DNA of 34,858 nt from an uncultured Pseudorhodobacter sp. GTDB taxonomy: Bacteria > Pseudomonadota > Alphaproteobacteria > Rhodobacterales > Rhodobacteraceae. How positions within the stretch are numbered: position 1 is the stretch's first letter; every line of letters begins with the position of its first letter. The translations under genes and the position numbers were made by a program. The notes under the pieces were generated by a model. That model saw nothing but the letters and a program-made list of their open reading frames with translations, was not told where the DNA came from and searched no databases. This document shows, piece after piece, positions 1,292 to 27,611 of the stretch. Location: contig CAMFLG010000003.1 of NCBI GenBank assembly GCA_945957495.1, positions 1 through 34,858 on the forward strand, read 5' to 3'.

Positions 1292-1345
1292 GCCGTTACT
1301 TCCCCTATGCCGCACCGCTGAGGGCGCCGGATTTGCCTGCCAGTT

Positions 1346-5090: not shown

Positions 5091-5100
5091 ATTCCGTTCC

Positions 5101-6566: not shown

Positions 6567-6621
6567 GCCTTCCCCCCCTTTGCGGCGCATCCCCTCAAAG
6601 ATTCGCGCTGCGTATGCTTTC

Positions 6622-7807
<1,186 letters not shown>

Positions 7808-7875
7808 GCCTTCTGGTCGACTCCTCCCGGCGCGGCTGGCTTTCTGGCCGCGCTGGGCTTCATATTGGAAATCCC

Positions 7876-8523
7876 ATGCGCTCTCTTCAGTTGTTGCCCC
7901 TTGTGGTGGCAATCGCTTTTGGCCTGACCTCCTGCAAGGTCGTCAAGACCGCAAGCAAGTCAACCACCTCCACCTCAGACGCTGCGCAAAGTGACGGGGC
8001 GGATCCCATCGCCAAGGTGGCGCAGGAAACGTTCGAGCCCAAACTGCTGCCGCTGATCGCGCAAAAGGCGCTGACCGTCGCAGATTTGCGCAAGGCTGTA
8101 GGCGCAGGGCTGGACGCCGCCGGGGCCGCCAGTGGCAATCGCGGCGCCGGGGAAGGTGCGGCATGGAACTTTGCCGTCAAGGGCGAAGGCAAGATCATCT
8201 CCGCCAATCTGACCAGCCGGGCACGCAAGGCCGAGCTTGACACAGACGGCGACGGCACCGCCGATCTGACGTTGCAGTTGGGCCCGGTCATCAATGGCAC
8301 CGCGCTGCGCGATGTGGCGCCTTTCTACAATTTCGGCGATTTCCGCGACCAGATCGAATTTGCCCAACTGGCCCGCGCCCTGAATGATCTGGCCAGCGCA
8401 AGGCTGGTCCTGCCTGACGGCGATCCGACCGGAAAAATGATGTCTTTTCAGGGCGTCGTGCCGTTGAAAAGCGCGGCTGAGCCTTGGTCCGTCACCGCCG
8501 TCGAGGCGGCGGTGTTGCCATGA
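7876..8523 (+). CDS. DUF2291-like lipoprotein associated with sugar ABC transporters
   Basis: Lipoprotein-like N-terminus (MRSLQLLPLVVAIAFGLTSCKVVKT) in a gene lying between the RbsB-like and RbsA-like genes, the usual DUF2291 position. Confidence 0.75.
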   Translation: MRSLQLLPLVVAIAFGLTSCKVVKTASKSTTSTSDAAQSDGADPIAKVAQETFEPKLLPLIAQKALTVADLRKAVGAGLDAAGAASGNRGAGEGAAWNFAVKGEGKIISANLTSRARKAELDTDGDGTADLTLQLGPVINGTALRDVAPFYNFGDFRDQIEFAQLARALNDLASARLVLPDGDPTGKMMSFQGVVPLKSAAEPWSVTAVEAAVLP

Positions 8524-11101: not shown

Positions 11102-11192
11102 ATCTGACTTTCAGGAACACGAGAATACCGCTAGGATTTCAGTCACACCATTAAAAACCATTCGCGTCCATACCCAAGAAAGAGAATGCGAC

Positions 11193-12002
11193 ATGAATTC
11201 AAATCGCAGCTTGGACCGCACTGATACAATGGTTGGGCTTTTGTCGGAACCCCGGCGTCGGCGCATCCTGGAATGGATTCAGGAAGAGGGCGCGGCCCGG
11301 GTCCGCGATCTGGCCGGGGCGTTTCAGGTGTCAGAGGCGACCATCCGCCAGGATCTGGAGCGTCTGGAAGCCGAAGGTCTGATCACGCGGGAACATGGCG
11401 GGGCATACCTGAATTCCAGCGTCAGCCCTGTCGGCACCATGGTTCTGCACCATCAGGACAATATGGACAAAAAGGCCCGGATTGGCGCGCTTGCCGCCAG
11501 TCTGGTGGGAAACGGCGAAACGCTTATCCTTGATGCGGGCACGACGACGACCGAAGTTGCGATCCGGCTGGTTAACCGCAAGAATCTGACCGTCATTACC
11601 AACGCGCTGAACATTGCGATTATTCTGGGGGCCGTTCCGGGATTTGCCGTGCATATGCCGGGTGGCCAGTTCAAGGTGCCGACCCTGTCGCTTTCCGGGG
11701 ACAAGTCGGTTGAATACTTCCGCAACATCTTCGCCGGAAAGCTCTTTCTCGCCACGGCAGGGGTTTCGCTGGAATCCGGCCTGACCTACCCCAGCTTTGC
11801 CGATCTGCAGTTGAAAGAGGCGATGATCAAGGCCGCCAGCCATGTCTATCTTGTGGCGGATTCCAGCAAGATCAACAAATCCTCTTTCACCCGCCTCGCG
11901 TCATTGGAGGTAGTGCAGACCTTCATCACGGATGACGGTATCTCTGACGCCGACGCCAAGGCATTCGAGGCGCGCGGCATCAATCTGCTGGTGGCAAAGT
12001 AG
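11193..12002 (+). CDS. DeoR/GlpR-family transcriptional regulator
   Basis: Winged HTH RRRRILEWIQEEGAARVRDLAGAFQVSEATIRQDLERLEAEGLITREHGGAYL and DeoRC sensor ILDAGTTTTEVAIRL. Confidence 0.93.
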   Translation: MNSNRSLDRTDTMVGLLSEPRRRRILEWIQEEGAARVRDLAGAFQVSEATIRQDLERLEAEGLITREHGGAYLNSSVSPVGTMVLHHQDNMDKKARIGALAASLVGNGETLILDAGTTTTEVAIRLVNRKNLTVITNALNIAIILGAVPGFAVHMPGGQFKVPTLSLSGDKSVEYFRNIFAGKLFLATAGVSLESGLTYPSFADLQLKEAMIKAASHVYLVADSSKINKSSFTRLASLEVVQTFITDDGISDADAKAFEARGINLLVAK

Positions 12003-12071: not shown

Positions 12072-12097
12072 TTCCGATCAATAGTAATTGATCGGAA
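12072..12097. terminator. Stem-loop TTCCGATCAAT-AGTA-ATTGATCGGAA at the convergent gene boundary
   Basis: 11-bp perfect inverted repeat with 4-nt loop, spanning the stop codon of the minus-strand class IV transaminase and 70 nt after the DeoR stop; no clear U-tract. Confidence 0.4.
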
Positions 12098-13040
12098 AGG
12101 TCAGCTCGGGGTCCGAATGCGCGTCCCAATACCCCTTCCAGATCGCCTTCGAAATCGGGCCGACCTGACCGGAACCAACGGGGCGGTGATCCAGCGTGGT
12201 GATGGGCATGACGCCGCCTGCCGTGGTGACAAACATGATCTCGTCACAGCTGTAGGCCATCTCCACCGGAATATCGTCAATCACCCATGGGATGCACAGC
12301 TTGTCGGCCACCGCCAGGATGGATTTGCGGGTAACACCTTCCAGGACTCCGCGCCGCGGAGTGTATAGCTTGCCATCCTGAACCAGCACCACGTTGAAGC
12401 CCGACCCCTCGGTCAGGTTGGCGTCGCCGTCTGTCAGGATCGGGTACATCGCGCCTCGATCGCGCGCCTCCAGAATGCCGCGGGTGAAATCACCCCACTG
12501 CAGGTTCTTCACTGTCGGGTCGATGGCCCCGGGCGAGATGCGGCGCACGGTGCGGGCGATGATGGCGGAACCACCCGTCTTTTGCACCTCTTCGCCCATC
12601 ACCCACAGATAGGGCGTGACCATAAGATAGCAGAAATTTTCGCAATCCTCGGGCGCGTATTGGCGGATATAGCGCAATCCGCGCGTCACGATGATCATCA
12701 CATAGGCATCGCGAATGCCGCTGGTCGCGGCCATTTCCACCAGCCGATCGCGGATTTCCTGACGCGGAATCGGGCTGACAAGGCGCAGCTTGGCAAGGCT
12801 GGCTTCAAAACGGTCCAGATGGTCGTCCAGCCGGAAAAAACGGCCATTCCAGATGGCTGGCACGTCATAGGTCAGGTCAGAATGCAGAAACCCCTGATCC
12901 AGAAGCGGAATTTTTGCATCCGCCACCGGTACATAATCACCGCCCACCCAAGCAATTCCCTTGGCAAATGGGTTCGTGCTGGCCTGCAAATCCTGAACGC
13001 GGCGGCGGTAGTCGTTGAAAATGTGATCGGTGTAGGTCAT
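12078..13040 (-). CDS. Fold-type IV PLP aminotransferase, likely (R)-selective amine transaminase
   Basis: [119 protein letters not shown] and [14 protein letters not shown] closely follow the recalled fungal/bacterial (R)-ATA pattern. Confidence 0.88.
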
Positions 13041-13067: not shown

Positions 13068-14312
13068 TCAGGCGGGAACGAAACCTGCGGCGATGATGTC
13101 GCCAAAGGCCGCGTCAACGGCTTCGATGGCACGGTCAATCTCGGCCGGGCCATGTGCGGCGCACAGGAACATGTTGTGTTTGGGGTGCAGGAACACCCCG
13201 TGACGCAGGGCTGCAGCACACAGCGCATTGCCGATGCGCAGATCCACGTCACCGTCCACCAGCACAACCGGCATTTGGGCAGGGCCGGTCTGGCGCAGGC
13301 GGAAGCCGTTGCGTTTGGCCACCTCGTCCAGCCCGGCGCGCAGGCGCAGACCCATGGCTTCGGTATGGGCAATCGCATCGGTGTCGCGCAGAATCCGCAC
13401 CGTCGTCAGCGCTGCCGCCATCGCCACCGCCCCATACCAAAAAGAGCCGGTGGTAAAGATTTTGTCCGCCCCGTCACGGGCCCGGTCAGAGCCCGCCACA
13501 CAGGCCAAGGGCCAACCGTTCGCGATGGATTTGGAATAGGTGGCAAGATCCGGTTTGACCCCGTAGCGTGCCCAACTGCCCCGAACGTCCAGCCGGAACC
13601 CCGCCCGCACGTCATCCAGGATCAGCATGGCACCGCTGCGGTCGCAGGCCGCGCGGGCGGCGCGCAGAAACGCCTCTGTCGGCATTTCCTGATCCCGGCC
13701 CACATCATGCCGATAGGCGGTCAGGATGATGGCGGCCAGATCGTCACCCGCCTCGGCCACAACGGCCTCAAGCCCGGCGATATCGCCCCATTCAAAGGTC
13801 ATCAGATGCGCACGGTCGGCTTCGGTGACACCTACGACCGATGGGGAACACCACGGCACAGCGCCATGATAAGCGCCCTTCGCCATGATCACCTTGCGCT
13901 TGCCGGTGCCCGCGCGGGCGATGGTCACGCTGGCCGTGGTTGCATCGGTGCCGTTCTTCTGGAACAGGCACCAATCGGCATTGTCCAGCGTGCCGGTCAG
14001 CAGTTCAGCCAGTTCAACGACCCGTTCGGTCGGACCATTGCCGCAATCCACCACGCGCAACTGTTCCAGCGCGGCGGCCTGCACTTCGGGGTGGTGATAG
14101 CCCAGGACATTTGGTCCCCAGGCGCACATGAAATCAATGAATTCGTTGCCATCAACATCCCAGACCCGGCAGCCATCGGCGCGCGAAAAGAACTGGGGAT
14201 AGCCGGGCGCGATGGCGCGGGTGGCCATATGGCCCCACATGCCGTTCGGGATCACATGGCGCGCGCGCTCCAGCAGGGCGGCATCGCGAGAGTTGGTCAA
14301 AGTGGCGGTCAT
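13068..14312 (-). CDS. Class III PLP aminotransferase (glutamate-1-semialdehyde aminomutase-like)
   Basis: PNGMWGHMATRAIAPGYPQFFSRADGCRVWDVDGNEFIDFMCAWGPNVLGYHHPEV, LILDDVRAGFR PLP-Asp motif and DLATYSKSIANGWPLACVAG Lys motif. Confidence 0.9.
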   Translation of the reverse strand: MTATLTNSRDAALLERARHVIPNGMWGHMATRAIAPGYPQFFSRADGCRVWDVDGNEFIDFMCAWGPNVLGYHHPEVQAAALEQLRVVDCGNGPTERVVELAELLTGTLDNADWCLFQKNGTDATTASVTIARAGTGKRKVIMAKGAYHGAVPWCSPSVVGVTEADRAHLMTFEWGDIAGLEAVVAEAGDDLAAIILTAYRHDVGRDQEMPTEAFLRAARAACDRSGAMLILDDVRAGFRLDVRGSWARYGVKPDLATYSKSIANGWPLACVAGSDRARDGADKIFTTGSFWYGAVAMAAALTTVRILRDTDAIAHTEAMGLRLRAGLDEVAKRNGFRLRQTGPAQMPVVLVDGDVDLRIGNALCAAALRHGVFLHPKHNMFLCAAHGPAEIDRAIEAVDAAFGDIIAAGFVPA

Positions 14313-14370: not shown

Positions 14371-15969
14371 TCAGTTGGTTATTTCCGCCAGCGGCAGGTT
14401 GCAGCAGGCGCTGTAACGCACCCCCTTGATATTGGGGCCATGGGCAAGGATCAGGTCCGGGCTGACCATCGGAATGATGATCTTGTTGTTGATCATCTCT
14501 TGCGCGGCTTCGTTCCACAGCTTGTCGGCTTCTTCTGCCGTGGGCGCCGCAAGCGCCGCCGTTTTCAGCTCACCCGGGCGCGGATTGATGATCGAGGGAT
14601 CATTGTCACCCCCCGCGCGCTTGGCCCAGACAGAGCCTTCCTGCATCCCGAACACATCGACATATTGCGAAGTGCCAAAGAAGTCGGGCGCAAAGAACAC
14701 TGCCGTCAGGGCAATGTGATCACCATTCGCCTGTTCGCGCCAGTTGGCCAACGGCATCGGCGTCAGTTCCAGGGTGATGCCAACCTTGGACAGATCCTGC
14801 TGGATCTTCTGCATCATCAAGGAAAAGTCCACGCCATAGACGTTCAGATCCGGATAGATCGACTGGATGGTAACGCCATCGCCCAGACCGGCAGCGGCCA
14901 GCATTTCCTTGGCCTTTTCGGGGTTGTATTCCGGGATGGCGTGCCCATCGCCGCCGGGGAAGCCCAGAGGGATCGGCGCGGCCAGCGGACGCCCGGCACC
15001 GCCCAGCGTGAAGTCGATCAGCGACGTGCGGTCAATGGCAATCGAGATGGCCTCGCGCACCTCGGGTGTCATCTTGAAGGTCAGCGATTTTGCCCCGGGG
15101 GACAGTGCCATATAGACGAAGTTGTAGGACGGTACGCTTTCCACAACGGCGTCGGTGCCTGTCAGCGATTTGGCGGTTTCCGGGTCGATCTGCATGGCGA
15201 TATCCACCTCGCCCGATTGCAGCATCTGCGCCTGCGACACCGCGTCCTTCACCTGACGAAAGATCACCTCCGGCACAGCAGGCTTGGCGCGCCAATAGGC
15301 CTCGTTGCGCTTCAGCCGCAGTTCGGTGTTCGGCTCGTACGCTTCCAGAACGAACGGACCGCTGCCTGCGGAATTGGACAGGAACCACGTCTCGGATGCG
15401 TCCTTTTCAGCGGCTGTTTCGTCTGCCAAAGCGCCGTTTGCGATGGCAACGTCGCTGTTGATCACGCCCAGAAAGCCTGCTGCAGCCTGATTGAGGAACT
15501 CAGAGTTGGAAGAAGCCAGCTTGACGATCACAGTCGCCGCATCTGGCGTATCAATCGACGTGATCGGGTCTGCGATGAAGGCTGCACTGCCTTTCATGTT
15601 CTTCACCCGCTCGAACGACCATTTCACATCCTTTGCCTCGACCGGCGAGCCATCCGAGAATTTGGCAGCCGGGTCCAGTTTGAAGGTGAATTCAGTCTGC
15701 TCGGGGTTCGAGGACCAGCTTGCCGCCAGCAGCGGCTGCAATTTGTTGTCCTTGTCCAGCGTGACAAGCTGTTCATAGACCGACGTGTTGTAAATCTGGC
15801 AGGTGTCACACCAGGACCGTGCCGGATCCAGCGCGTTCACATCCATGTCGCGCGCGATCACCAGCGCTTTTTCCTCGGCAAAGGCTGACGGTGCGGTCAG
15901 CCCGAAGACAGCGGCCATCAGCGCAAAGGAAATAAGCGCGGCTTTTGGCCTGAGAACCCTAGTAATCAT
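14371..15969 (-). CDS. ABC transporter substrate-binding protein, family 5 (peptide/nickel/opine type)
   Basis: Signal peptide, then YEQLVTLDKDNKLQPLLAASWSSNPEQTEFTFKLDPAAKFSDGSPVEAKDVKWSFERV, the SBP_bac_5 pattern. Confidence 0.92.
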   Translation of the reverse strand: MITRVLRPKAALISFALMAAVFGLTAPSAFAEEKALVIARDMDVNALDPARSWCDTCQIYNTSVYEQLVTLDKDNKLQPLLAASWSSNPEQTEFTFKLDPAAKFSDGSPVEAKDVKWSFERVKNMKGSAAFIADPITSIDTPDAATVIVKLASSNSEFLNQAAAGFLGVINSDVAIANGALADETAAEKDASETWFLSNSAGSGPFVLEAYEPNTELRLKRNEAYWRAKPAVPEVIFRQVKDAVSQAQMLQSGEVDIAMQIDPETAKSLTGTDAVVESVPSYNFVYMALSPGAKSLTFKMTPEVREAISIAIDRTSLIDFTLGGAGRPLAAPIPLGFPGGDGHAIPEYNPEKAKEMLAAAGLGDGVTIQSIYPDLNVYGVDFSLMMQKIQQDLSKVGITLELTPMPLANWREQANGDHIALTAVFFAPDFFGTSQYVDVFGMQEGSVWAKRAGGDNDPSIINPRPGELKTAALAAPTAEEADKLWNEAAQEMINNKIIIPMVSPDLILAHGPNIKGVRYSACCNLPLAEITN

Positions 15970-16009: not shown

Positions 16010-18184
16010 CTAGTTCGCCGTGATGCGAAGCAGCGCCTCACGGATATCCGCCGCAGAACCCAGTGCGGCACGATTCAGCACTGCCGAGACGGTCGGGGCG
16101 GCAAGCCCGCCCGTCACCCGCAGAATTTCGTGATCCAGTCGGTCGAAGAACCGGCTTTGGATGCCATCGGCCCAAACTGCACCGATCGACATGCTGCGCG
16201 CAGTCTGCTCGGCGATGATGACCCGGCCCGTCCGGTCAATGGAGTCGCCGATCATCCCCCAGTCGATGCCGTGATGATCCAGATTGCGCAGGTCGATCAC
16301 TTCGGCGTCGATCCCGGTGTCTTTGGCGGCCTGCACGGCCTGCGCGACCATGACCGATGTGGCCAGCACGGTGCAGGCGCTGCCCGGACGAACGGTATGC
16401 GCGCGGCCAAAGCCGATGCAATAGTCCCGGTCGCCTGCGGGCACCTCAAACTCGCGCTGGTAAAGCTCGGTATGTTCTATCATCAATACCGGGTCGTTGC
16501 AGGTCAGCGCCGCATTCATCATCCCGATGTAGTCAAAGGCCGTGGTCGGGCTGAAAATCCGCCACCCCGGAAACAGCGCGAACAGCGCCGACGGGTCGGT
16601 GGAATGCTGCGAGCCATAGCCGGTGTGTGGCGACACGCGCACGCGCATTAACAATGGCACCGGAAAGCCAGAGCCGAACATATGGCGCACCTTGCCCACG
16701 CCATGTGCGATCTGATCCGCAGCGGTAAAGCAGAAGTCGCCGAACATGATTTCGACCACCGGGCGCAGGCCATTCAGCGCCGCGCCAAGCGCCACGCCGG
16801 TAAAGCCGTTTTCGGCAATCGGCATCGGCAGCACCCGGCCCGGCCAGCGTTCCAGCGCACCTTTGGTAAAGCCGGAAACGCCGCCGCGCAGCTGATGCAC
16901 GTCTTCGCCCATCACGATAATGCGCGAATCACGGTTCATCGCGCTGGCCAGCGTTTCCGAGGCGGCGGTGATGAACTTCACCCGCTCGGTCTTCAGGTGG
17001 CGCAGATCGTCGTGGTCCAACATCCGCGCATCGGCCAACTCGGACAGATCGCCAAGGATGCCAGTGTCGCGGCTGGCTGGGTCGGGCCAAAGATGGTCAG
17101 GAATGCGCAGGGCATTGCCCCCTGGCACCGTTTCCGTCAGTCGGGCTGCGGCGGCGGCCACGCGGCCTGTCACGCTTGCGTCAATGCGGGCAAGATCATC
17201 CTGATGCACAAGGCCCATGTCCAGCAGACGCGCCCGTGTGGTGGTGACGGGATCGCGGGCAAGCCACGCCTCTTCCTCCTCGGTGGCGCGGTAGCCGAAA
17301 TCGCTGCCCCGGCGACTGCCCGACTGGTGGAAATGCCGGTACAGCATCGCCTCGACAACCACCGGGCCACCGTCCTCGGCGATGATGCGCCGCGCCTCTG
17401 CCATAGCGCGATGAACTGCAACCACATCCATGCCGTCGCATTCGATCGCCGGTATGCCCAACATCGCCCCGCGCGACGTCAGCCGTGTTTCACGCGTAAT
17501 GTCGGTGATCCGGGTCGCAACGCCGTAAAGGTTGTTCTCAATGAAGAAGATCGTTGGAACACCCTGCGCGGCGGCGATGTTCATCGCCTCATAGCTTGCG
17601 CCGTTCTGGGTTGCCCCATCACCAAAAAAGGCCACCGATACGCGGTCACGGCCCAGCATCTTGTCGGCCAGCGCATAGCCCACGGCATGCGGTGGGTTGC
17701 CCCCCACAATGGCCGAGGTGCCCATGATTCCGGCCGCCGCGTTGCGCATATGCATAGAGCCGCCGCGCCCACCACAGTAGCCGGGCGTCAGCCCCATGAT
17801 CTCTGCCATGAAGCGGTGCAGCGCCTCGTCCATCTCGGGGGTGAAATCGTCGCGCAGCACGTCAAATCCGGGCGGCGTCGCCGCGTTCACCAGTTTCATC
17901 AGCACCTGATGATGGGCACGGTGGGTGCCGTTGATGTTGTCGCCGGTCTGCAGAACCGACATTGCACCCACGGCCCCCGCCTCTTGCCCGATGCTGGCAT
18001 GGGCGGGGCCGTGGATCAGCCCGGCTTTTTCCAGTTCCAGCAGTTTTTCCTCGAACCGGCGGATCAAAAGCATCTGACCGTACCAATGGATCAGATCGGC
18101 GGGCGGCGCATCGTCCCAGTCCTGCGCGCTGGTTTCCAGCCGGAACCAGGGCGCCGAAGGAGAAAGTTGGATCCGCTGGGCCAT
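16010..18184 (-). CDS. TPP-dependent 2-oxoacid (acetoin/pyruvate/branched-chain type) dehydrogenase E1, fused alpha and beta subunits
   Basis: N-terminal E1-alpha motifs (GPAHASIGQEAGAVG, GGRGGSMHM, FFGDGATQNGASYEAMNIAA) and C-terminal E1-beta motifs (VMGEDVHQLRGGVSGFTKG, GFTGVALGAALNGLRPVVEIMFGDF, EVIDLRNLDH) in one 724 aa ORF. Confidence 0.92.
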   Translation of the reverse strand: MAQRIQLSPSAPWFRLETSAQDWDDAPPADLIHWYGQMLLIRRFEEKLLELEKAGLIHGPAHASIGQEAGAVGAMSVLQTGDNINGTHRAHHQVLMKLVNAATPPGFDVLRDDFTPEMDEALHRFMAEIMGLTPGYCGGRGGSMHMRNAAAGIMGTSAIVGGNPPHAVGYALADKMLGRDRVSVAFFGDGATQNGASYEAMNIAAAQGVPTIFFIENNLYGVATRITDITRETRLTSRGAMLGIPAIECDGMDVVAVHRAMAEARRIIAEDGGPVVVEAMLYRHFHQSGSRRGSDFGYRATEEEEAWLARDPVTTTRARLLDMGLVHQDDLARIDASVTGRVAAAAARLTETVPGGNALRIPDHLWPDPASRDTGILGDLSELADARMLDHDDLRHLKTERVKFITAASETLASAMNRDSRIIVMGEDVHQLRGGVSGFTKGALERWPGRVLPMPIAENGFTGVALGAALNGLRPVVEIMFGDFCFTAADQIAHGVGKVRHMFGSGFPVPLLMRVRVSPHTGYGSQHSTDPSALFALFPGWRIFSPTTAFDYIGMMNAALTCNDPVLMIEHTELYQREFEVPAGDRDYCIGFGRAHTVRPGSACTVLATSVMVAQAVQAAKDTGIDAEVIDLRNLDHHGIDWGMIGDSIDRTGRVIIAEQTARSMSIGAVWADGIQSRFFDRLDHEILRVTGGLAAPTVSAVLNRAALGSAADIREALLRITAN

Positions 18185-18250
18185 CTGTCGTCCTTTGTCC
18201 GCTTGCCCCACAGCGCCAGAAGGTGGCGGTTTGAGGTGAGTCTGTTTTAT

Positions 18251-18263
18251 GGAATATAATTCC
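18251..18263. promoter_or_regulatory. Palindrome GGAAT-ATA-ATTCC between divergent E1 and acyl-CoA dehydrogenase genes, candidate IclR-type operator
   Basis: Exact odd palindrome in the 138-bp divergent intergenic region; resembles IclR-family TGGAATNNNATTCCA-type sites. Confidence 0.45.
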
Positions 18264-18322
18264 GTTTTCTCTTGAATCGGAGACTAAGCCGTGCCAGCCT
18301 TTCCGTGCAACATAAATCTTTC

Positions 18323-19504
18323 ATGCCGGACACAGGTTCGGCGGCAAGGCAAGCGACAGACATGATCCGTGATGCAGAAATCCTGGCGGGGCTGGTTGAA
18401 ACCCTGCGCCGTTTTGTGCGCGAACGCCTGATGCCCGCCGAGACAACGGTAGAGGAAACCAACACGATTCCCGCCGTCCTGCTGGATGAGATGCGCGCCC
18501 TTGGCCTGTTCGGCATGTCCATTCCCGAGGCTTATGGCGGGCTTGGCCTGACCATGGAGGAAGAGGTCATGGTCACGCTGGAACTGGGCTATACCTCTGC
18601 CGCGTTCCGGTCGGTGTTCGGCACCAACAACGGTATCGGCGCGCAGGGGATCATCGTGGATGGCACGGCGGCGCAAAAGGCATACTGGCTGCCGCGCATG
18701 GCGTCAGGGCTGGTGATCGGGTCTTTCGCGCTGACAGAGCCGGATGTCGGGTCGGACGCAGGGGCGGTCAAGACAACGGCGGTGCTGGACGGGGATCACT
18801 ACGTTCTGAACGGGACCAAACGCTATATCACCAATGCCCCCATCGCCAATGTATTCACGCTGATGGCGCGCACGGGTGGCCCAGGTCCGGCAGGGGTCAC
18901 GGCCTTTCTGGTGCCAGCCGACACCCCGGGTCTGAGCCTTGGCGCCCCCGATCTGAAGATGGGCCAGCGCGGAACGCGAACCTGCGATGTAATCTTGCAG
19001 GACTGCCGGGTTCCCGCATCGGCGATCATCGGCGGGGTTTCGGGGCAGGGGTTCAAGACGGCGATGAAGGTGCTGAACCGGGGTCGGCTGAACATCGCCG
19101 CCTTTTGCGTCGGGCAGGCGCAGCGGCTTTGCGATGAATCGGTGCGCTTTGCCACCAACCGGGTGCAGTTCGGCAAACCCATTTCTGAACATCAGCTGGT
19201 GCAGGCGATGCTGGCCGACAGCGGCACGGAAACCTATGCCGCGCGCTGTATGGTGATCGAAACGGCCCGCCGCTTCGACGCGGGCGAGCGGATCATTCAG
19301 CATGCGGCCAGTTGCAAGCTGTTCTGTTCGGAAATGGTCGGCCGGGTGGCGGACCGGGCGGTGCAGATCCATGGCGGTGCAGGCTATATGCAGGCCTATC
19401 CGGTAGAGCATTTCTATCGGGACGTGCGGTTGTTCCGGCTTTACGAAGGCACTTCGCAGATTCAGCAGATCATCATTGGCCGCGAAATGTGCGCCGCTAC
19501 CTGA
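18323..19504 (+). CDS. Acyl-CoA dehydrogenase
   Basis: GSFALTEPDVGSDAGAVKTTAVLDGDHYVLNGTKRYITNA, RVQFGKPISEHQLVQ, QIHGGAGYMQAYPVEHFYRDVRLFRLYEGTSQIQQIIIGR. Confidence 0.95.
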   Translation: MPDTGSAARQATDMIRDAEILAGLVETLRRFVRERLMPAETTVEETNTIPAVLLDEMRALGLFGMSIPEAYGGLGLTMEEEVMVTLELGYTSAAFRSVFGTNNGIGAQGIIVDGTAAQKAYWLPRMASGLVIGSFALTEPDVGSDAGAVKTTAVLDGDHYVLNGTKRYITNAPIANVFTLMARTGGPGPAGVTAFLVPADTPGLSLGAPDLKMGQRGTRTCDVILQDCRVPASAIIGGVSGQGFKTAMKVLNRGRLNIAAFCVGQAQRLCDESVRFATNRVQFGKPISEHQLVQAMLADSGTETYAARCMVIETARRFDAGERIIQHAASCKLFCSEMVGRVADRAVQIHGGAGYMQAYPVEHFYRDVRLFRLYEGTSQIQQIIIGREMCAAT

Positions 19505-19515
19505 CAGGATATGCC

Positions 19516-20760
19516 ATGGCGCCCGTGATCGGCATTATCGCAGATGACTTTACCGGCGCGGTCATGGTGGCCGGAATGCTGGAAGGGTTGGACGTGCATT
19601 GCCCCATCCTGTTCCATCCCGATGGCGCCGCCGGGGCCGGGGCCGGGGGCGTTGCGCTGATCGCCGCCGCGCGCAGCCGGACGGTTCCGGTGGAACAGGC
19701 GCTGAGGGAAATCGCCGCCCTGCACGCCGCCCTGACGGCGGCAGGATGCCCCCGCATCGCCTACAAAGCCTGCGCGAGTTTCGATTCCACCGCGCAGGGC
19801 AACATCGGCCCTGCTGCCGATTTTCTGGCAGACAAAGCCGGGCAGCGCCCTGTGCTGCTTAGCGCGGGCTTCCCGCGCTTTGGTGCGACGGTGCATCAGG
19901 GCTATCTGTTTTACCGCAACCGGCTGGTGTCCGACTCGATCAAGCGGCTGGACCCTTTGACGCCGATGGAGGATCCCGATCTGGTGCGGTTTCTGGGCCG
20001 TCAGACGCCGCATGGCTTCGGCCTGATCAACCATGCAACGCTGCATCTTGGCCTGCCTGCGGCGCGGGCGGCATTGCAGGCATTGGTGCAAACGGGCGTG
20101 GGGCATGTCTTGCTGGATGCGTCGGATGATGACGACGTGGCGGTGTCCGCCGATCTGGCGACGGGGCTTGATCTGCCGGTGGTGGCCAGTGATCCACTGA
20201 TTGTGGCTTTGACGCAAAGGCTGGCCGCAGGCGCGCCGCCCGCCCCGCCCGTGCCACCAGTGCCAACCGGGCCGATTGCGGTTCTGGCCGGCAGCACCGG
20301 GCCGGTTGTGATGACGCATCTGACCGCGTTCCGCGCACAGCACCCGGTTCTGACGCTGGACCTGTCGCATCCACAGGGTACGCCTGCATTGGTTGCAGAG
20401 GCATTGAATTGGGCGGCGGCGCAGCGCGGTCCTTTTGCCGTCTCCACGGCGACCGATGCCGAAGGTTTGGCGCGCAGTCAGGCCATGCACGGGCCATTGG
20501 GCGCGGCGCGGTTGGCCGAGGCGGTTCTGGCCGGGGTGGCGGCAGGGCTATACGCGCGCGGCATTCGCCGGTTTGTCGTGGCGGGGGGCGAAACCTCGGG
20601 TGCCGTGGTCGCTGCCCTGGGTCTGACCCGCGCCCGCGCCTTGCCAGAGGGGCGTCTTGGCCTTGGCCAATGTGTGGCTGATGGGGATGCCCCGTTGTGG
20701 CTGTTCCTCAAGCCCGGCAAGCTGGGGGCCGAGGATGTTCTGTTGCAGGCCGTAGCCTGA
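19516..20760 (+). CDS. Four-carbon acid sugar kinase family protein (DUF1537, OtnK-like)
   Basis: IGIIADDFTGAVMVAGML N-terminus, AYKACASFDSTAQGNIGP, C-terminal FVVAGGETSGAVVAALG. Confidence 0.88.
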   Translation: MAPVIGIIADDFTGAVMVAGMLEGLDVHCPILFHPDGAAGAGAGGVALIAAARSRTVPVEQALREIAALHAALTAAGCPRIAYKACASFDSTAQGNIGPAADFLADKAGQRPVLLSAGFPRFGATVHQGYLFYRNRLVSDSIKRLDPLTPMEDPDLVRFLGRQTPHGFGLINHATLHLGLPAARAALQALVQTGVGHVLLDASDDDDVAVSADLATGLDLPVVASDPLIVALTQRLAAGAPPAPPVPPVPTGPIAVLAGSTGPVVMTHLTAFRAQHPVLTLDLSHPQGTPALVAEALNWAAAQRGPFAVSTATDAEGLARSQAMHGPLGAARLAEAVLAGVAAGLYARGIRRFVVAGGETSGAVVAALGLTRARALPEGRLGLGQCVADGDAPLWLFLKPGKLGAEDVLLQAVA

Positions 20761-20776: not shown

Positions 20777-21427
20777 ATGCCGATGGATGAGGAAACCGCA
20801 CGTCAGGCGCTGGTGGCCGCAGCCCAAGACTTGGTGCGGCTGGGGCTGAACAGCGGCACGGTGGGCAACCTTAGCCTGCGGCATGGCGCGGGGCTGTTGA
20901 TCACACCCACGGGAATTGCCCCCGAAGTCATGACCGCCGATCAGATCGTGGCCATGGACAGCGCGGGCAACTGGCAAGGGAAATGGGCGCCGTCTTCGGA
21001 ATGGGACATTCACTTGCGGATTCTGGCCGCGCGGCCGGATGTCGGGGCGGTGATTCACGCCCATCCCGACCATTGCGTTGCGCTGTCCTGTCTGCGCCAG
21101 CCGATCCCCGCCTTTCACTATATGGTGGCGGGGTTTGGTGGCGATGAGGTGCCTTGCGCGGATTATGCCTGTTTCGGCAGCCCAGAGTTGGCTGAAACCG
21201 TCGTCGCGGCGCTGGGCGCGCGGCTGCACGGTTGTCTGATGGCCAATCACGGCATGGTGGCGACGGGGACAGACCTTGCCACCGCGCTGGCCCGGACGGC
21301 AAAGCTGGAAACGCTGGCGCGGCAATTCCTGCTAGCGCGCGTGCTGGGTGCCCCTGTCCTGTTGACGCAAGCCGAGATGGCCGCCGTCAAGAACCGATAC
21401 AAAAGTTACGGCAAACAGCCCGGCTGA
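20777..21427 (+). CDS. Class II aldolase/adducin family protein (OtnC/fuculose-phosphate-aldolase-like)
   Basis: LGLNSGTVGNLSLRHGAGLLITPTGIAPE and VIHAHPDHCVALSCL metal-binding His motif, CLMANHGMVATG. Confidence 0.9.
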   Translation: MPMDEETARQALVAAAQDLVRLGLNSGTVGNLSLRHGAGLLITPTGIAPEVMTADQIVAMDSAGNWQGKWAPSSEWDIHLRILAARPDVGAVIHAHPDHCVALSCLRQPIPAFHYMVAGFGGDEVPCADYACFGSPELAETVVAALGARLHGCLMANHGMVATGTDLATALARTAKLETLARQFLLARVLGAPVLLTQAEMAAVKNRYKSYGKQPG

Positions 21428-21431: not shown

Positions 21432-22703
21432 TCAGACCGCGCTGCGCCACAACTCTGTCAGCAACCGCAGCGACAGCACAGCCTGTTCCAGATGCGGCAT
21501 ATGTCCGCAATCAGCCAGCGCGTGCAGCGCCACCGCGCCGGGTAAATCGCGCGTGGTGGCGAAAGGCAGGATGCGGTCCTGCCGCCCAAAGATCACCCGC
21601 ACCGGCAGGCTCAGACGTGCCAGATCGGCCCGGATCGACAGGATCTGCGTGGCGTCGGGTAGAAAGCGGTCGGCAAACGCCGCCATCGCGGCGGTCAACC
21701 CGTCGTCCTGCCGTTGCGCGGCCACGGTTTTCACAAAAGCCTCGCTGATCACCGCAGGGTCATGCACCAGCCGCTCAAGCCAGGGTCGCAGGCTGGCGGC
21801 GCTGCGCGCGCGCAGAATGCCATTAGTGAAGGGGGCGTCGATTTCGGGGCCAAGCCCGGCAGGCGCGAACAGGCACAGCCCGCGCACGTCCAACCCGCCC
21901 CGCGCGGCAATCCGCGCCGCGACCGCGCCACCCAATGAATGACCGGCCAGTACCAGTGGCCCTGTGACATGCGCCGCAATCGACGCCTCGACCAGCGTGC
22001 ACAGCACCTCTATATCTGCCGGAATGGCGCGCGGCGAGGCACCATGGCCGGGCAGATCAAGCGCCAGAACCGGGAAGTCTGCCCGCGCCCCGGCAAACAG
22101 CCCGCGCCAGTTGTTCAGATCACCGCTGAACCCATGCAACAAGACAACCGGAACCCCGCTGCCACGCCGCAGCCAGACAGCGTTCAGGCTTTGGGCGTCG
22201 GGCGCCGGGGCAGGGCGGGCGCCCCGCGCGACCAACCCATCCAGATGCGCCATCACATCGGTCTTTTGCACCCGGCCACGCGGCCCGGTGCCGGTCAACC
22301 CGGTCAGATCCAGTCCGCGTTCCCGGGCGATCCGCCGCGCCAGCGGCGTGGGGTTGGGCAAACGCGCGGCCCGCGCCGTCAACGGCGGGGCTGGGGCGCG
22401 GACGGGTGCCGCAACCGTTGCAGGGCGCGCAGCCGTATCAGTCGGAGTGGCCGCAACAAGCACCTCATCCGTGGCAAGAATCTGCGCCACCGTCGCGCCA
22501 ACATCCACCTCGGCGCCTTCGGGGCTCAGATGCCGGATCACGCCGCTGGCCGGGGATTCAACCTCGACCGCGGCCTTGTCATTCTCGATCTCGAACAGGA
22601 CATCGCCCGCCGTGACGGTCGCTCCATCATCAACCAGCCAGCGGCTGATGCGCCCGGTCTGCATTTCAAGGCTGACCTTTGGATAAAGCACTGGAACGGG
22701 CAT
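21432..22703 (-). CDS. AcoC-like dihydrolipoamide acyltransferase-type E2: lipoyl domain + E3-binding domain + alpha/beta hydrolase
   Basis: Lipoyl motif EIENDKAAVEVESPASG, PSBD-like PLARRIARERGLDLTGLTGTGPRGRVQKTDV, then VVLLHGFSGDLNNW and LAGHSLGGAVAARIA alpha/beta-hydrolase motifs. Confidence 0.9.
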   Translation of the reverse strand: MPVPVLYPKVSLEMQTGRISRWLVDDGATVTAGDVLFEIENDKAAVEVESPASGVIRHLSPEGAEVDVGATVAQILATDEVLVAATPTDTAARPATVAAPVRAPAPPLTARAARLPNPTPLARRIARERGLDLTGLTGTGPRGRVQKTDVMAHLDGLVARGARPAPAPDAQSLNAVWLRRGSGVPVVLLHGFSGDLNNWRGLFAGARADFPVLALDLPGHGASPRAIPADIEVLCTLVEASIAAHVTGPLVLAGHSLGGAVAARIAARGGLDVRGLCLFAPAGLGPEIDAPFTNGILRARSAASLRPWLERLVHDPAVISEAFVKTVAAQRQDDGLTAAMAAFADRFLPDATQILSIRADLARLSLPVRVIFGRQDRILPFATTRDLPGAVALHALADCGHMPHLEQAVLSLRLLTELWRSAV

Positions 22704-22719: not shown

Positions 22720-23559
22720 TCAAGTGGCCACAAGGGCCGGGGCAGCAGGGGTAACGGGCGCGCCGTTCAATCGGGCGCGCAGGTTTTTGACCGTTTCAAC
22801 CAGATCCGGGCCGATGCGCGAAATGCAGGTTTCCCGGGGGATGATATCCACGATGCCGCCGCAGGTGATCGCCACCAATGGCGAGCCATCGGTGGGGCGG
22901 AAGGCAACGCCGACCGCGTTGATATAGCTGTACCAGGTGCCATAGGTGCCAACGAAGCCCCGCGTCGCATAGCTTTCGATCGCGTCATCGACGGCGGCGC
23001 GGATCTGGCGTTCCTGCGCAGGCTCTTTCGCAGCGATCTGGTTCAGAACATCGGCGCGGATATCGGCACCCATTTCTGCCAGATAGGCCAAACCCATCGC
23101 CGTGCGCCAGATTGGCAGGCGCGAACCGACATTCAGCCGCAGCGAAACCGGGCTTTGTGACCGGCAGTTGGCCAGATACACCATCTCCAGCCCGTCGCGG
23201 GTGCCAAGCGCCGTCGCAACGCCTGAACGGTCGGCAAGCACCTGCATCAAGGGGCCCGCCATATGCACGACAGCGCTGGAACTCAGCGCAGTGTAACCCA
23301 GCGAAACCGTTGCCGGGCCAATGCTATAGCGGCCAAGCTGCGTGTCGTAGTGCAGATAGCCAAGCGATACGAGCGCCGCTGTCAGCCGTGAAACGGTGGC
23401 CTTCGGCAGGCCGGTCCGCTCCAGCAGTTCCTGATTGCCAAGGGTGGTATCATTCGCCGTAAAGCAGCGCAGGATGTCCAGCCCGCGCGTCAGCGAGGCG
23501 GCCGCATTGCTGGCATCCGCCGATTCTGTTCCCTCGACAGGGATGGCCCGTTTCCTCAT
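22720..23559 (-). CDS. IclR-family transcriptional regulator
   Basis: ASLTRGLDILRCFTANDTTLGNQELLERTGLPKATVSRLTAALVSLGYLHYD HTH and IclR effector-domain pattern; long upstream extension of the ORF judged non-coding. Confidence 0.93.
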   Translation of the reverse strand: MRKRAIPVEGTESADASNAAASLTRGLDILRCFTANDTTLGNQELLERTGLPKATVSRLTAALVSLGYLHYDTQLGRYSIGPATVSLGYTALSSSAVVHMAGPLMQVLADRSGVATALGTRDGLEMVYLANCRSQSPVSLRLNVGSRLPIWRTAMGLAYLAEMGADIRADVLNQIAAKEPAQERQIRAAVDDAIESYATRGFVGTYGTWYSYINAVGVAFRPTDGSPLVAITCGGIVDIIPRETCISRIGPDLVETVKNLRARLNGAPVTPAAPALVAT

Positions 23560-23731: not shown

Positions 23732-24745
23732 ATGACCCGATACATCCTGCGCCGTCTGCTTGCGATGCCTTTCCTTGTGCTTGGGGTGGTGACACTGGCC
23801 TTCCTGCTGACCTCTGTGACCAAGGGCGATCCGTTGACGGCCATTGTTTCGGACAGACAGATGAACAACCCCGAGGTTGTGGCGGCGGCAAAGGCGAAAT
23901 GGGGCCTCGATCGCAGCCTGCCAGAGCGGTACATCATCTACGTCGGCAACCTGCTTCAGGGCGATATGGGAACCTCGTTCATCACCCGGCGCCCGGTGGC
24001 GCAGGATGTGATGTACCGCCTGCCCGCGACGATGGAACTGGTGATTGCCGCCATGATCATCGGATCGCTGATGGGGGTCAGTCTGGGGGTGTTGGCGGCC
24101 TATTTCCGCAACACGGTGATTGACCACGCCGCACGGGTTTTCGCGCTGTTCGGCTCTTCGATCCCGGTGTTCTGGATGGGGCTTGCGTTGCTCTACCTCT
24201 TTTCGGTGCATTGGGGGGTGCTGCCCGGGCCGGGGCGCATTGATGCCCGCGCCACCCTGCCACCCACTGTCACCGGCTTTCTGACCATCGACACCCTGCT
24301 TGCAGGGGACGTGCCGCTGTTCTTCAACGCGCTGTGGCATCTGATTCTGCCGGCCTTCGTGCTGGGATGGGCCGTCGCGGGAACGATCTCGCGGCTGGTG
24401 CGGGCCAACATGCTGGAAATCCTGTCGCGCGAATTCATCATGACCGCCCGCGCCAAAGGTGCGGGAGAGTTGCGCGTCGTCACCCGCCACGCCCTGCGCA
24501 ACACCATGGTGCCGACCTTGACGGTGATCGGCTATTCCTTTGCGTATTTGCTGACCGGCGCGGTGCTGACCGAAACGATCTTCTCCTGGCCGGGGATGGG
24601 ATCTTATGCGGTCGATGCGGCACGCGGCCTTGATTTTCCCGCGATCATTGGCGTGACCATCGTGGGCGGCGTGATCTTTCTTGTGACCAACCTGTTGACC
24701 GACATCGCCTATGTTGTCGCCAACCCGCGCGTCCGGCTGGGCTGA
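23732..24745 (+). CDS. Peptide/nickel-type ABC transporter permease (DppB-like)
   Basis: MTRYILRRLLAMPFLVLGVVTLAFLL N-terminus, SREFIMTARAKGAGELRVVTRHALRNTMVPTLTVIG EAA-loop. Confidence 0.94.
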   Translation: MTRYILRRLLAMPFLVLGVVTLAFLLTSVTKGDPLTAIVSDRQMNNPEVVAAAKAKWGLDRSLPERYIIYVGNLLQGDMGTSFITRRPVAQDVMYRLPATMELVIAAMIIGSLMGVSLGVLAAYFRNTVIDHAARVFALFGSSIPVFWMGLALLYLFSVHWGVLPGPGRIDARATLPPTVTGFLTIDTLLAGDVPLFFNALWHLILPAFVLGWAVAGTISRLVRANMLEILSREFIMTARAKGAGELRVVTRHALRNTMVPTLTVIGYSFAYLLTGAVLTETIFSWPGMGSYAVDAARGLDFPAIIGVTIVGGVIFLVTNLLTDIAYVVANPRVRLG

Positions 24746-24748
24746 CCG

Positions 24749-25603
24749 ATGACCACAAATCCGCTTCATCCCCCCGTTGCCCCGCGCCGCCTGACCCGCC
24801 CGCGCTGGCTGTCGCTGCCGCTGATGGTCGGAGCCGCAATTGTCGGGTTCTGGCTGCTGACCACGTTCGCCGCGCCCTGGATGTCGTCCTATGACCCGTT
24901 GGAAATGGTTGCCCGCCGCCTGCAACCCCCCAGTTGGGAGCATTGGCTGGGCACCGATGCGCTGGGCCGCGATGTCCTCAGCCGTACCCTGCACGGCGCG
25001 CGCCATTCGCTGCCCATCGCGGTCACGGTGGTGGCGGTTGCCGTGGCGATCGGCGCGACTTTGGGCGCGCTGGCCGGATTTCTGGGCGGGTTTGCCGATA
25101 CGGCGATCATGCGGCTGGTCGATGTCACCCTGTCGTTTCCGCCGATGTTGCTGGCGATGGCGGTGGCGGCCTCGCTGGGGCCGGGCCTGGAAAACGCTGC
25201 CATTGCCATGGTGATCGTCTGGTGGCCCGTCTATGCCCGCCTGATGCGCGCCCAGGTGCTGGAGGTGCGCGAACGTGAGCATGTCGAGGCCGCCGTAGCC
25301 AGCGGCGCCACCCGGGCAAGGGTGCTGACCAAGCACATCCTGCCGCTATGCTGGACCCCGGTGCTGATCAGCGCAACGATGGATCTGGGGCAGGTGATCC
25401 TGCTGGCGGCGTCGCTGTCCTTCATCGGGCTGGGGGCAACCCCGCCCACGCCGGAATGGGGCTCGATGATCTCGGAAGGGGCATCGCAGTTCTATTCCTG
25501 GTGGGTGGCACTTGGCCCCGGCCTTGCCATCCTGACCATCGTTCTGGGCTTCAACTTCGTCGGGGACGGCCTGCACGACTACTTTGATCCGAGGTCGAAA
25601 TGA
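24749..25603 (+). CDS. Peptide/nickel-type ABC transporter permease (DppC-like)
   Basis: HWLGTDALGRDVLSRTLHGARHSLPIAV, AAVASGATRARVLTKHILPLCWTPVLI EAA-loop, C-terminal [18 protein letters not shown]. Confidence 0.95.
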   Translation: MTTNPLHPPVAPRRLTRPRWLSLPLMVGAAIVGFWLLTTFAAPWMSSYDPLEMVARRLQPPSWEHWLGTDALGRDVLSRTLHGARHSLPIAVTVVAVAVAIGATLGALAGFLGGFADTAIMRLVDVTLSFPPMLLAMAVAASLGPGLENAAIAMVIVWWPVYARLMRAQVLEVREREHVEAAVASGATRARVLTKHILPLCWTPVLISATMDLGQVILLAASLSFIGLGATPPTPEWGSMISEGASQFYSWWVALGPGLAILTIVLGFNFVGDGLHDYFDPRSK

Positions 25604-26601
25604 GCATGGAACCCCAGGTGCCACCGTTGTTTCAGGTGGAAGGGCTGCGCGTCGCCTTTGGTCGCGATGGGCAGCTATATGAGGCGGTGCGTGGCATCAG
25701 CCTGCATGTAGACCCGGGCGAAGTGCTGGGCATCGTGGGCGAATCCGGTTCGGGGAAATCAGTAGGCATGTTGGCGGCCTTGGGCCTGCAACCCGAAGGC
25801 GCGCGCGTGTCGGGTTCTGTGCGCTTCAAGGGCCAGGAACTGGTCGGCATGCCCCGCAGCCAGTTGCGCAAACTGCGTGGCGCGCGGATTGCGATGATCT
25901 TTCAAGACCCGCTGTCCTCGCTGAACCCGGTGATGACGGTGGGCGATCAGATCATCGAGGCGGTGCGGCTGCACCATCCCGATATGTCGCGCAAGGCAGC
26001 AATGGGGCGGGCGCTGGACCTTTTGGCGCTGGTCGCCATTCCGCAGCCTGATCGCCGGGTCAAACAATACCCCCACGAATTTTCCGGCGGGATGCGCCAG
26101 CGGGTGATGATCGCCATGGCCATGGCCAATGATCCCGATCTGCTGATCGCGGATGAGCCGACCACGGCGCTGGATGTCACCGTTCAGGCGCAGATCATGG
26201 AGGTTCTGGCCGATCTGCAAGATCGCCTGAAACTGGGCCTGATCCTGATCACGCATGATCTGGGCGTGCTGGCGGGCCATGCTGACCGCGTGGCGGTGGT
26301 TTACGCCGGGCAGGTGGTGGAACAGGCGGGGGTGGATGATCTGTTCGCCCGACCGGGCCACCCCTACACCCGTGGCCTGATCGCCTCGATCCCCAATATG
26401 GCGGCGGAAAGCGAGCGGCTGTTTTCCATCGACGGCACACCGCCGGTCTTGGGCAAGCTGCCGACCGGATGCGCCTTTCATCCGCGCTGTCGTCACGCCC
26501 GCGAGATCTGCCGCAGTCTGGCCCCACAGGCGCAAACGGCGGGCGCGGGCCACAGCGCCGCCTGCCATTTCGCCTTTGCCACGCCGGAGGCTGCACCATG
26601 A
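25600..26601 (+). CDS. Peptide-type ABC transporter ATP-binding protein (DppD/OppD-like)
   Basis: GESGSGKSV Walker [60 protein letters not shown]-terminal [11 protein letters not shown]. Confidence 0.96.
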
Positions 26602-27611
26602 CCGCCCAACACCCCCCGCTTCTAAGCGTTCGTAATCTGGTCAAGCGTTTTCCGGTCAAGGGTGGCTTGCTGATTGAACGCGATGTCGGACACGTCAATG
26701 CGGTGGCCGACGTGTCTTTTGATCTGGCCGCAGGCGAAACCCTCGGGCTGGTGGGGGAATCCGGTTGCGGCAAATCCACGCTGGGTCGCTGCCTGTTGCG
26801 CCTGATCGAACCCAGCAGCGGCCAGACCCTGTTTCACGGGCAGGATATCAACACGCTGCCCGCCCCGCAGATGCGCGCCCTGCGGCGCAAGATTCAGCTG
26901 GTGTTTCAAGACCCCTATGCCTCGCTTCACCCACGCATGACGGTGTCGCAGAACATTGCCGAACCCTTGCGTATCAGCGATCTGTCACTGGCCGATCGCA
27001 GCCGCAGGGTGGCAGAGATGCTGGATCTGGTGCAACTGAACCCCGAACACGGCACACGCTATCCGCATGCCCTGTCGGGCGGACAGCGCCAGCGCGTCGT
27101 GATCGCCCGCGCCCTTGCGCTGCGGCCCGAACTGCTGGTGCTGGACGAACCGGTTTCGGCGTTGGACGTGTCGGTGCAGGCTGGGGTGCTGAACCTGCTG
27201 AAAGACGTGCAGACAGAGCTTGGCACGGCCTTCCTGTTCATCGCGCATGATCTGTCGGTGGTGCAGCACATCAGCCAACGGGTCGCGGTGATGTATCTGG
27301 GCAAGATCGTTGAAATCGCGCCAAAACGGCTTTTGTATTCGGCGCCGCTGCATCCCTATACGCAGGCGCTGATGTCGGCGGTGCCTTTGGCCGATCCGCC
27401 GCGCGAAAGGGCGCGGGCGCGGCTGGTGCTGAAAGGCGATGTGCCCAGCCCGATCAACCCGCCGTCGGGCTGCCGTTTCCGAACGCGCTGCCCCATCGCC
27501 CAGCCCCGCTGCGCCGAGGAGGAGCCGGCGCTTACCATGGGCCCGGGCGGTCATGCGGTTGCCTGCCATTTTCCAAGCGCCCGCGAAACGGGCCTGGCCA
27601 TCAGCGCCTGA
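26598..27611 (+). CDS. Peptide-type ABC transporter ATP-binding protein (DppF/OppF-like)
   Basis: [77 protein letters not shown]. Confidence 0.96.

What the first reader, a model, noticed from the sequence alone, without database searches (positions are those of the whole stretch)
12078..13040. Likely bacterial (R)-selective amine transaminase
The protein matches the recalled fold-IV (R)-ATA pattern closely: [88 protein letters not shown]. These enzymes are biocatalytically valuable and their native roles are poorly understood. Here one sits in a coherent catabolic operon, giving a rare clue to natural substrate.
Basis: partly seen in the sequence, partly recalled or inferred. Interest (0 to 1): 0.75.

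Follow-up and report, generated by a model that had tools for sequence, protein, structure and literature searches.

The report
(R)-amine transaminase in amine-catabolism regulon
The gene is a bacterial (R)-selective amine transaminase of a known, industrially used kind, and its strict pairing with a fumonisin-type transaminase inside one conserved catabolic regulon gives a testable guess (breakdown of amino alcohols) at what these enzymes do in nature.

Summary
Window 12078-13040, minus strand, is an intact 320-aa class IV transaminase with all four quoted motifs. It is 79% identical to the solved Shinella (R)-ATA (6XU3) and 64% to the Aspergillus terreus enzyme. Catalytic lysine, carboxylate-switch arginine and most pocket residues are kept. 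As an enzyme it is a new member of a known kind.

The surroundings are more interesting. The gene ends a 20-kb block of four transcription units: dipeptide-type ABC importer, class III transaminase (AT3), E1 and acetoin-dehydrogenase-type E2, ketose-type kinase, aldolase, beta-oxidation enzymes and an IclR regulator. One palindromic operator lies at both divergent promoters and nowhere else in the draft genome. Of 45 related genomes, 44 also carry AT3, against about 3% of the class. AT3 belongs to the family of FumI, which turns a 2-amino-3-ol into a 2-keto-3-ol. Outside this block AT3 often sits beside a split transketolase.

Best explanation: with AT3, the enzyme deaminates an imported vicinal amino alcohol, probably both epimers, to an alpha-hydroxyketone that the TPP-dependent enzymes cleave. 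The exact substrate is unknown and nothing was assayed. The 6XU3 gene itself lies in this block, so the idea can be tested on a characterised enzyme.

The parts
12078..13040 (-). (R)-selective amine transaminase (PLP fold type IV), 320 aa; the finding (RATA)
   Evidence: 79% id to 6XU3, 64% to A. terreus
13068..14312 (-). class III transaminase of the FumI (aminopentol aminotransferase) family (AT3), 28 bp from RATA
   Evidence: 423 bits to 6HBS FumI; FumI nests inside the AT3 tree
14371..15969 (-). ABC substrate-binding protein, family 5 (SBP5)
   Evidence: PF00496; start chosen at the signal-peptide Met; conserved next to AT3
16010..18184 (-). fused alpha/beta TPP-dependent 2-oxoacid/acyloin dehydrogenase E1 (E1ab)
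   Evidence: PF00676, PF02779, PF02780; below PDH equivalog cut-offs
18250..18264 (.). palindromic operator TGGAATATAATTCCG in the E1ab/ACAD divergent promoter
   Evidence: one of only two genome-wide matches; same place in orthologous loci
18362..19504 (+). acyl-CoA dehydrogenase (ACAD)
   Evidence: Pfam ACAD domains
19516..20760 (+). four-carbon acid sugar kinase, 3-oxo-tetronate-kinase-like (OtnK)
   Evidence: PF07005/PF17042; 263 bits to NF043035, below its 350 cut-off
20777..21427 (+). class II aldolase, fuculose-phosphate-aldolase-like (ald2)
   Evidence: PF00596; best NCBIfam hit PRK08087, below cut-off
21432..22703 (-). acetoin-dehydrogenase-type E2: lipoyl + E3-binding + alpha/beta-hydrolase domains
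   Evidence: 376 bits to NF011457, above its cut-off of 307
22720..23559 (-). IclR-family regulator (PcaR/PcaU-like)
   Evidence: PF09339/PF01614
23618..23632 (.). palindromic operator TGAAACTTAATTTCA in the IclR/dppB divergent promoter
23732..27611 (+). dppBCDF-type ABC importer (two permeases, two ATPases)
   Evidence: translations; annotated in orthologous plasmid blocks
27638..28882 (+). class III CoA-transferase (CaiB/BaiF)
   Evidence: PF02515
28973..30919 (+). enoyl-CoA hydratase / 3-hydroxyacyl-CoA dehydrogenase fusion
   Evidence: PF00378, PF02737, PF00725
30916..32352 (+). aldehyde dehydrogenase (succinate-semialdehyde-DH-like)
   Evidence: PF00171; annotated so in Shinella HZN7

Best explanation
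The gene encodes a PLP-dependent (R)-selective amine transaminase that moves the amino group of an imported (R)-amine to pyruvate, giving a ketone and D-alanine. It works with the neighbouring FumI-type class III transaminase in one IclR-controlled catabolic regulon. The most likely substrate class is a vicinal amino alcohol (2-amino-3-ol or 2-amino-polyol), with the two transaminases together accepting both epimers at the amine carbon. The product is an alpha-hydroxyketone. Its C-C bond is cut by the fused E1 with the acetoin-dehydrogenase-type E2 (giving an acyl-CoA and an aldehyde), or, for a product with a terminal CH2OH, by phosphorylation and retro-aldol cleavage (OtnK-like kinase and FucA-like aldolase, giving DHAP and an aldehyde). 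The aldehyde is oxidised, attached to CoA and beta-oxidised. SHOWN: protein family, block conservation, shared operator, co-occurrence with AT3. INFERRED: substrates, direction, enantiomer split, order of steps.
For: (1) Enzyme: 79% identity to 6XU3, active-site residues kept. 6XU3 is identical over 319/319 residues to the enzyme of Shinella SUS2 (L014), whose locus carries the same block. (2) Partner: 35 of 45 genome loci with RATA hold AT3 within 10 kb, 16 of them within 100 bp on the same strand; 9 of the other 10 genomes hold AT3 elsewhere. Background is 12 of 386 in the class and 8 of 295 RATA-negative genomes in the family. The label changes at least 7 times on the AT3 tree, so the link was made repeatedly. 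(3) Chemistry: FumI, nested inside AT3, transfers the C2 amine of a 2-amino-3-ol to pyruvate giving a 3-hydroxy-2-one (PMC2933618). The E2 passes the curated acetoin-dehydrogenase E2 cut-off. AT3 loci without the E1 carry a split transketolase in L066, L071, L082, L111, L115, L150, L152, L153, L154, L156, L157 and L158, and kinase plus aldolase in L066, L085, L150, L152 and L154. (4) Co-regulation: one palindrome at both divergent promoters, only these two copies in the 3.43-Mb draft, conserved at the same place in Rhodobacter, Shinella, Rhizobium and others. (5) A D-amino-acid-dehydrogenase-like flavoenzyme sits beside RATA in L040, L044 and L047, as expected if D-alanine is made.
Against: No activity was measured. 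Whether the E1 prefers acyloins over 2-oxoacids could not be told: it is below all curated cut-offs and about 40% identical to the genome's own PDH alpha. No E3 gene is in the block. Most Ancylobacter and Caulobacter-type RATA loci lack the E1/E2/kinase/aldolase set, so the downstream route varies. AT3 is 43-83% identical across loci and may have more than one substrate. L045 (Aureimonas) has RATA but no AT3. The family-5 importer does not name a ligand.
Confidence: 0.5

Rival explanations
1. D-amino-acid / 2-oxoacid route: RATA and AT3 deaminate the D- and L-forms of an alpha-amino acid, the fused E1/E2 oxidatively decarboxylates the 2-oxoacid to an acyl-CoA, and ACAD, ECH/HAD and thiolase finish it. 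Kinase and aldolase are unrelated passengers.
For: E1 domain make-up fits a 2-oxoacid dehydrogenase; ACAD and ECH/HAD are the normal next steps; (R)-ATAs accept D-alanine (established knowledge); peptide-type importer.
Against: RATA scores far below the D-amino-acid transaminase cut-offs. AT3 is in the FumI family, not an alpha-amino-acid family. The E2 is of the acetoin-dehydrogenase type. Transketolase, OtnK-like kinase and aldolase recur with AT3 in many loci and have no place in this route.
Confidence: 0.2
2. The two transaminases act on two different amine groups of one molecule (a diamine or amino-amide product), not on two epimers of one centre.
For: Some loci carry two AT3 paralogs instead of AT3 plus RATA (L152, L154), so needing two transaminases is a theme that does not by itself mean opposite enantiomers. 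Amide hydrolases sit in several AT3 loci.
Against: Many AT3 loci have a single transaminase and the same downstream genes (L066, L150).
Confidence: 0.15
3. RATA is a generalist amine scavenger that supplies nitrogen, and its linkage to AT3 reflects shared xenobiotic or secondary-metabolite niches rather than one pathway.
For: Patchy distribution (0 of 386 other class genomes, 2 of 297 other family genomes), plasmid carriage, different neighbours in Ancylobacter (luciferase-like monooxygenase and flavin reductase).
Against: Shared unique operator and near-fixed gene order across Rhodobacterales, Rhizobiales and Rhodospirillales; 44 of 45 co-occurrence with AT3.
Confidence: 0.12

Closest known systems
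Shinella (R)-selective amine transaminase, PDB 6XU3 (Telzerow et al. 2021, as cited in PMC10671532)
   Same: 79% identical over 319 residues; same pocket residues including Y113 and M115; same gene block in Shinella SUS2, whose enzyme is identical to 6XU3
   Different: Minor sequence differences only; the genomic context was not discussed in the papers I could read, and the 2021 paper itself is not held
Aspergillus terreus (R)-omega-transaminase (4CE5 / 8X1F) and other fungal (R)-ATAs
   Same: 64% identical; same fold, catalytic lysine and R128 loop arginine
   Different: F115->Y, E117->M, C273->V; fungal enzymes form their own branch inside the otherwise bacterial clade
Arthrobacter KNK168-type (R)-amine transaminase (3WWH)
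   Same: Same wider (R)-ATA group by sequence
   Different: Much more distant: 256 bits against 460 for A. terreus
FumI, aminopentol aminotransferase of fumonisin degradation (6HBS), for the neighbour AT3
   Same: FumI nests inside the AT3 family tree; both are class III transaminases
   Different: The window's AT3 lies in the sister branch, not in the FumI subclade; its own substrate is untested
Acetoin dehydrogenase complex
   Same: E2 has lipoyl, E3-binding and alpha/beta-hydrolase domains and passes the curated E2 cut-off
   Different: E1 is a fused alpha/beta chain below equivalog cut-offs; no E3 in the block; acetoin itself is unlikely to be the substrate

Membership tests
(R)-selective amine transaminase (PLP fold type IV) | Class IV aminotransferase fold with catalytic lysine | tested here: met
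   PF01063 E 1e-36; K178 aligned to K180 of A. terreus
(R)-selective amine transaminase (PLP fold type IV) | Falls in a clade with characterised (R)-ATAs rather than BCAT, D-ATA or ADCL | tested here: met
   Tree with 6XU3 and A. terreus; all BCAT, D-ATA and ADCL NCBIfam models far below cut-off
(R)-selective amine transaminase (PLP fold type IV) | Active-site residues of known (R)-ATAs, including the flexible-loop arginine for dual substrate binding | tested here: met
   H53, Y58, V60, R126, W182, T272, T273 conserved; Y113, M115 and V271 as in 6XU3. The formal 2010 motif table was not available to me
(R)-selective amine transaminase (PLP fold type IV) | Converts (R)-1-phenylethylamine or similar with pyruvate, not the (S)-form | not testable with these tools
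   Needs assay
FumI family of class III transaminases (for neighbour AT3) | Groups with FumI to the exclusion of GSA aminomutase | tested here: met
   423 bits to FumI against 166 to the next best; tree nests FumI inside AT3
FumI family of class III transaminases (for neighbour AT3) | Deaminates hydrolysed fumonisin or another 2-amino-3-ol | not testable with these tools
   Needs assay
Acetoin dehydrogenase complex | E2 with alpha/beta-hydrolase catalytic domain | tested here: met
   NF011457 376 bits, cut-off 307
Acetoin dehydrogenase complex | E1 of the acetoin type | tested here: inconclusive
   Domains present but no curated E1 model passes its cut-off
Acetoin dehydrogenase complex | Dedicated E3 in the cluster | tested here: not met
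   No E3 gene seen in the block
Branched-chain or D-amino-acid transaminase | Passes curated equivalog or subfamily cut-off | tested here: not met
   Best 163 bits against cut-off 363 (BCAT subfamily); D-ATA 110-122 against 277-320

The most novel reading that the evidence does not exclude
A so far undescribed catabolic pathway for vicinal amino alcohols (possibly sphingoid-like 2-amino-1,3(,4)-polyols) in which enantiocomplementary transaminases, a fold-IV (R)-ATA and a FumI-type class III enzyme, feed an alpha-hydroxyketone to a TPP-dependent cleavage complex and a ketose-type kinase/aldolase branch. This would be the native role of the (R)-ATA family, and fumonisin deamination by FumI would be an offshoot of the same chemistry.
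Probability: 0.35. Interest if true: 0.72.

Novelty: new member of a known kind. Interest (0 to 1): 0.52.

Why it matters
(R)-selective amine transaminases are widely used in chiral-amine synthesis, and I found no paper that names a physiological substrate for them. Here a close relative sits in a small dedicated regulon. Its partner genes point to one substrate class, and the gene of an already crystallised enzyme (6XU3) sits in the same block. That makes the question testable with defined enzymes and a knock-out in a cultured Shinella, and would direct mining for (R)-ATAs that accept amino alcohols.

Tried and rejected
Considered and rejected: (a) BCAT or D-amino-acid transaminase (NCBIfam scores). 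(b) The sugar ABC / transketolase / kinase unit upstream (about 1868-12002) as part of the same pathway: not conserved with RATA in other genomes and no operator there. (c) Catabolism of a specific pollutant such as chloramphenicol: literature gave no support. (d) Similarity to the Pseudomonas sphingosine operon sphBCD: different enzyme types (PMC11893366). Led nowhere: paper searches for a stated natural role of (R)-ATAs; the 2021 Shinella paper is not held; ligand of the SBP cannot be told from homologues (best hit AgaA at only 109 bits); terminator scan after RATA found nothing. My simple gene caller mis-called some high-GC loci, so gene content was read from tblastn maps and annotated records instead.

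Full report
WHAT IS THERE. The plus strand of the interval is not open. The best solved relative is PDB 6XU3 (611 bits, 79% identity over 319 residues), an (R)-ATA from Shinella according to PMC10671532. A. terreus and other fungal (R)-ATAs follow at about 460 bits, while the Arthrobacter-type enzyme gives only 256 bits. NCBIfam models for BCAT, D-amino-acid transaminase and ADC lyase all score far below cut-off. In register with A. terreus numbering, H55, Y60, V62, R128, K180, W184, T274 and T275 are conserved; F115, E117 and C273 are Y, M and V, exactly as in 6XU3. A maximum-likelihood tree places it among Rhodobacterales sequences, with 6XU3 and the fungal enzymes in the same well-supported clade.

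THE BLOCK. The gene is the last of an operon E1ab-SBP5-AT3-RATA (minus strand). Next to it lie ACAD-OtnK-ald2 (plus), IclR-E2 (minus) and dppBCDF-CoA transferase-ECH/HAD-ALDH (plus), from 12078 to 32352. The same block, in the same order, is on Shinella sp. HZN7 plasmid pShin-08 and on an Agrobacterium sp. T29 plasmid, the latter with a 3-oxoadipyl-CoA-type thiolase in addition, and in most Rhodobacter-like and Shinella genomes fetched. Rhizobium SSA_523 has the block without AT3 and aldolase, and carries an AT3 beside a transketolase pair elsewhere on the same plasmid. The sugar transporter, transketolase and kinase genes on the other side (about 1868-12002) do not travel with RATA.

REGULATION. 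A 15-bp palindrome lies in both divergent promoter regions: TGGAATATAATTCCG at 18250 and TGAAACTTAATTTCA at 23618. A degenerate form of it has exactly these two matches in the 3.43-Mb draft genome and none for the reversed control. In orthologous loci a similar palindrome sits at the same place: CGGAATTWATTTCCA between E1ab and ACAD in 18 loci, and TGRAAYNNNRTTYCA-type sites between IclR and dppB in L021, L022, L080 and L110. The pattern was read off the window first, so the window's own score is circular; the orthologues are the independent part, and the genome-wide scan shows only that the pattern is not common. I infer one IclR-controlled regulon that includes RATA.

CO-OCCURRENCE. RATA is rare: none of 386 other genomes drawn from the class and 2 of 297 drawn from the family. 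AT3 is found in 12 of 386 and, among family genomes without RATA, in 8 of 295. Of 45 genome loci with RATA, 35 hold AT3 within 10 kb, and 9 of the remaining 10 genomes hold AT3 elsewhere, so 44 of 45 carry both. These genomes are related in part, so this is not 45 independent events; but on the AT3 tree the label 'with RATA' must change at least 7 times, so the link was made repeatedly.

WHAT AT3 SAYS. AT3's best solved relative is FumI, the aminopentol aminotransferase. With FumI's sequence added, FumI nests inside the AT3 family next to AT3s from RATA-carrying genomes, one of them a Sphingopyxis. FumI transfers the C2 amine of hydrolysed fumonisin B1, a 2-amino-3-ol, to pyruvate and yields a 3-hydroxy-2-one (PMC2933618). 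An alpha-hydroxyketone is what acetoin-dehydrogenase-type complexes cleave, and the block's E2 passes the curated acetoin-dehydrogenase E2 cut-off. In AT3 loci that lack this E1, a split transketolase, also a ketol-cleaving TPP enzyme, sits beside AT3 in twelve loci. A 3-oxo-tetronate-type kinase and a fuculose-phosphate-type aldolase recur in five of the AT3-only loci and in RATA loci; together they suit a HOCH2-CO-CH(OH)-R intermediate. Amide hydrolases (DMF-amidase-like PF20254, amidase, penicillin-acylase-like) recur in AT3-only loci, as if the amine often arrives acylated. In L040, L044 and L047 a D-amino-acid-dehydrogenase-like flavoenzyme is nearby, which fits D-alanine as the by-product of RATA.

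PROPOSED MECHANISM. Import by the family-5/Dpp transporter; deamination at the same carbon by AT3 and RATA, plausibly one for each epimer, with pyruvate as acceptor; cleavage of the hydroxyketone by E1/E2 to acyl-CoA plus aldehyde, or by kinase plus aldolase to DHAP plus aldehyde; oxidation by ALDH; CoA transfer; ACAD, hydratase/dehydrogenase and thiolase. Only gene content, family membership, co-occurrence and the operator are shown; all reactions are inferred. The main rival is an alpha-amino-acid / 2-oxoacid route, which explains E1 and beta-oxidation but not AT3's family, the E2 type, or the recurring transketolase, kinase and aldolase.

KNOWN OR NEW. As an enzyme this is a new member of a known kind. 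The literature I could search named no physiological substrate for (R)-ATAs and no pathway of this make-up; subscription papers, and the 2021 Shinella paper, could not be read. The useful new point is that the gene of the crystallised Shinella enzyme (identical over 319/319 residues to L014) lies in this regulon, so a defined enzyme and a cultivable genus are at hand for the test. Limits: the source genome is a draft of about 82% completeness in 521 contigs, and nothing was assayed.

Noticed in passing
window 1868-12002: Separate sugar-type unit: FGGY kinase, split transketolase pair, isomerase-like gene, RbsB/A/C-type ABC transporter and DeoR regulator. It adjoins the RATA block but is not conserved with it.
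   Followed up: partly
L152 and L154: Two different AT3 (FumI-family) paralogs in one locus with transketolase pair, OtnK-like kinase and aldolase, without RATA: two transaminases per locus is a recurring theme.
   Followed up: partly
L034, L035, L037, L039, L041, L043 (Ancylobacter): RATA with a luciferase-like monooxygenase and/or flavin reductase and a PotD-type transporter instead of the Dpp importer and E1/E2 set; a different route to or from the same kind of amine.
   Followed up: no
L087, L090, L106 (RATA relatives of about 41-46% identity): More distant class IV relatives sit with transketolase pairs or E1/E2, and in two of the three with HDAC-type amidohydrolases; all three have an SDR neighbour. 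The TPP-enzyme link may hold for the wider group.
   Followed up: partly
tree: Fungal (R)-ATA structures (A. terreus and near relative 8ZM7) branch inside the alphaproteobacterial clade (98/99), suggesting transfer from bacteria to fungi; one long bacterial branch (L050) carries this, so it is tentative.
   Followed up: partly
window 32815-34113: Secretory-lipase-like protein (PF03583) just downstream of the aldehyde dehydrogenase; unclear whether it belongs to the regulon.
   Followed up: no
window 263-1372, minus strand: Histone-deacetylase/acetylpolyamine-amidohydrolase-like gene; similar genes (44-50% identical) sit beside distant RATA relatives in L087 and L106.
   Followed up: no
L018: A MAG labelled Burkholderiales carries a RATA (80%) that groups with Paracoccaceae; transfer or a binning error.
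   Followed up: no
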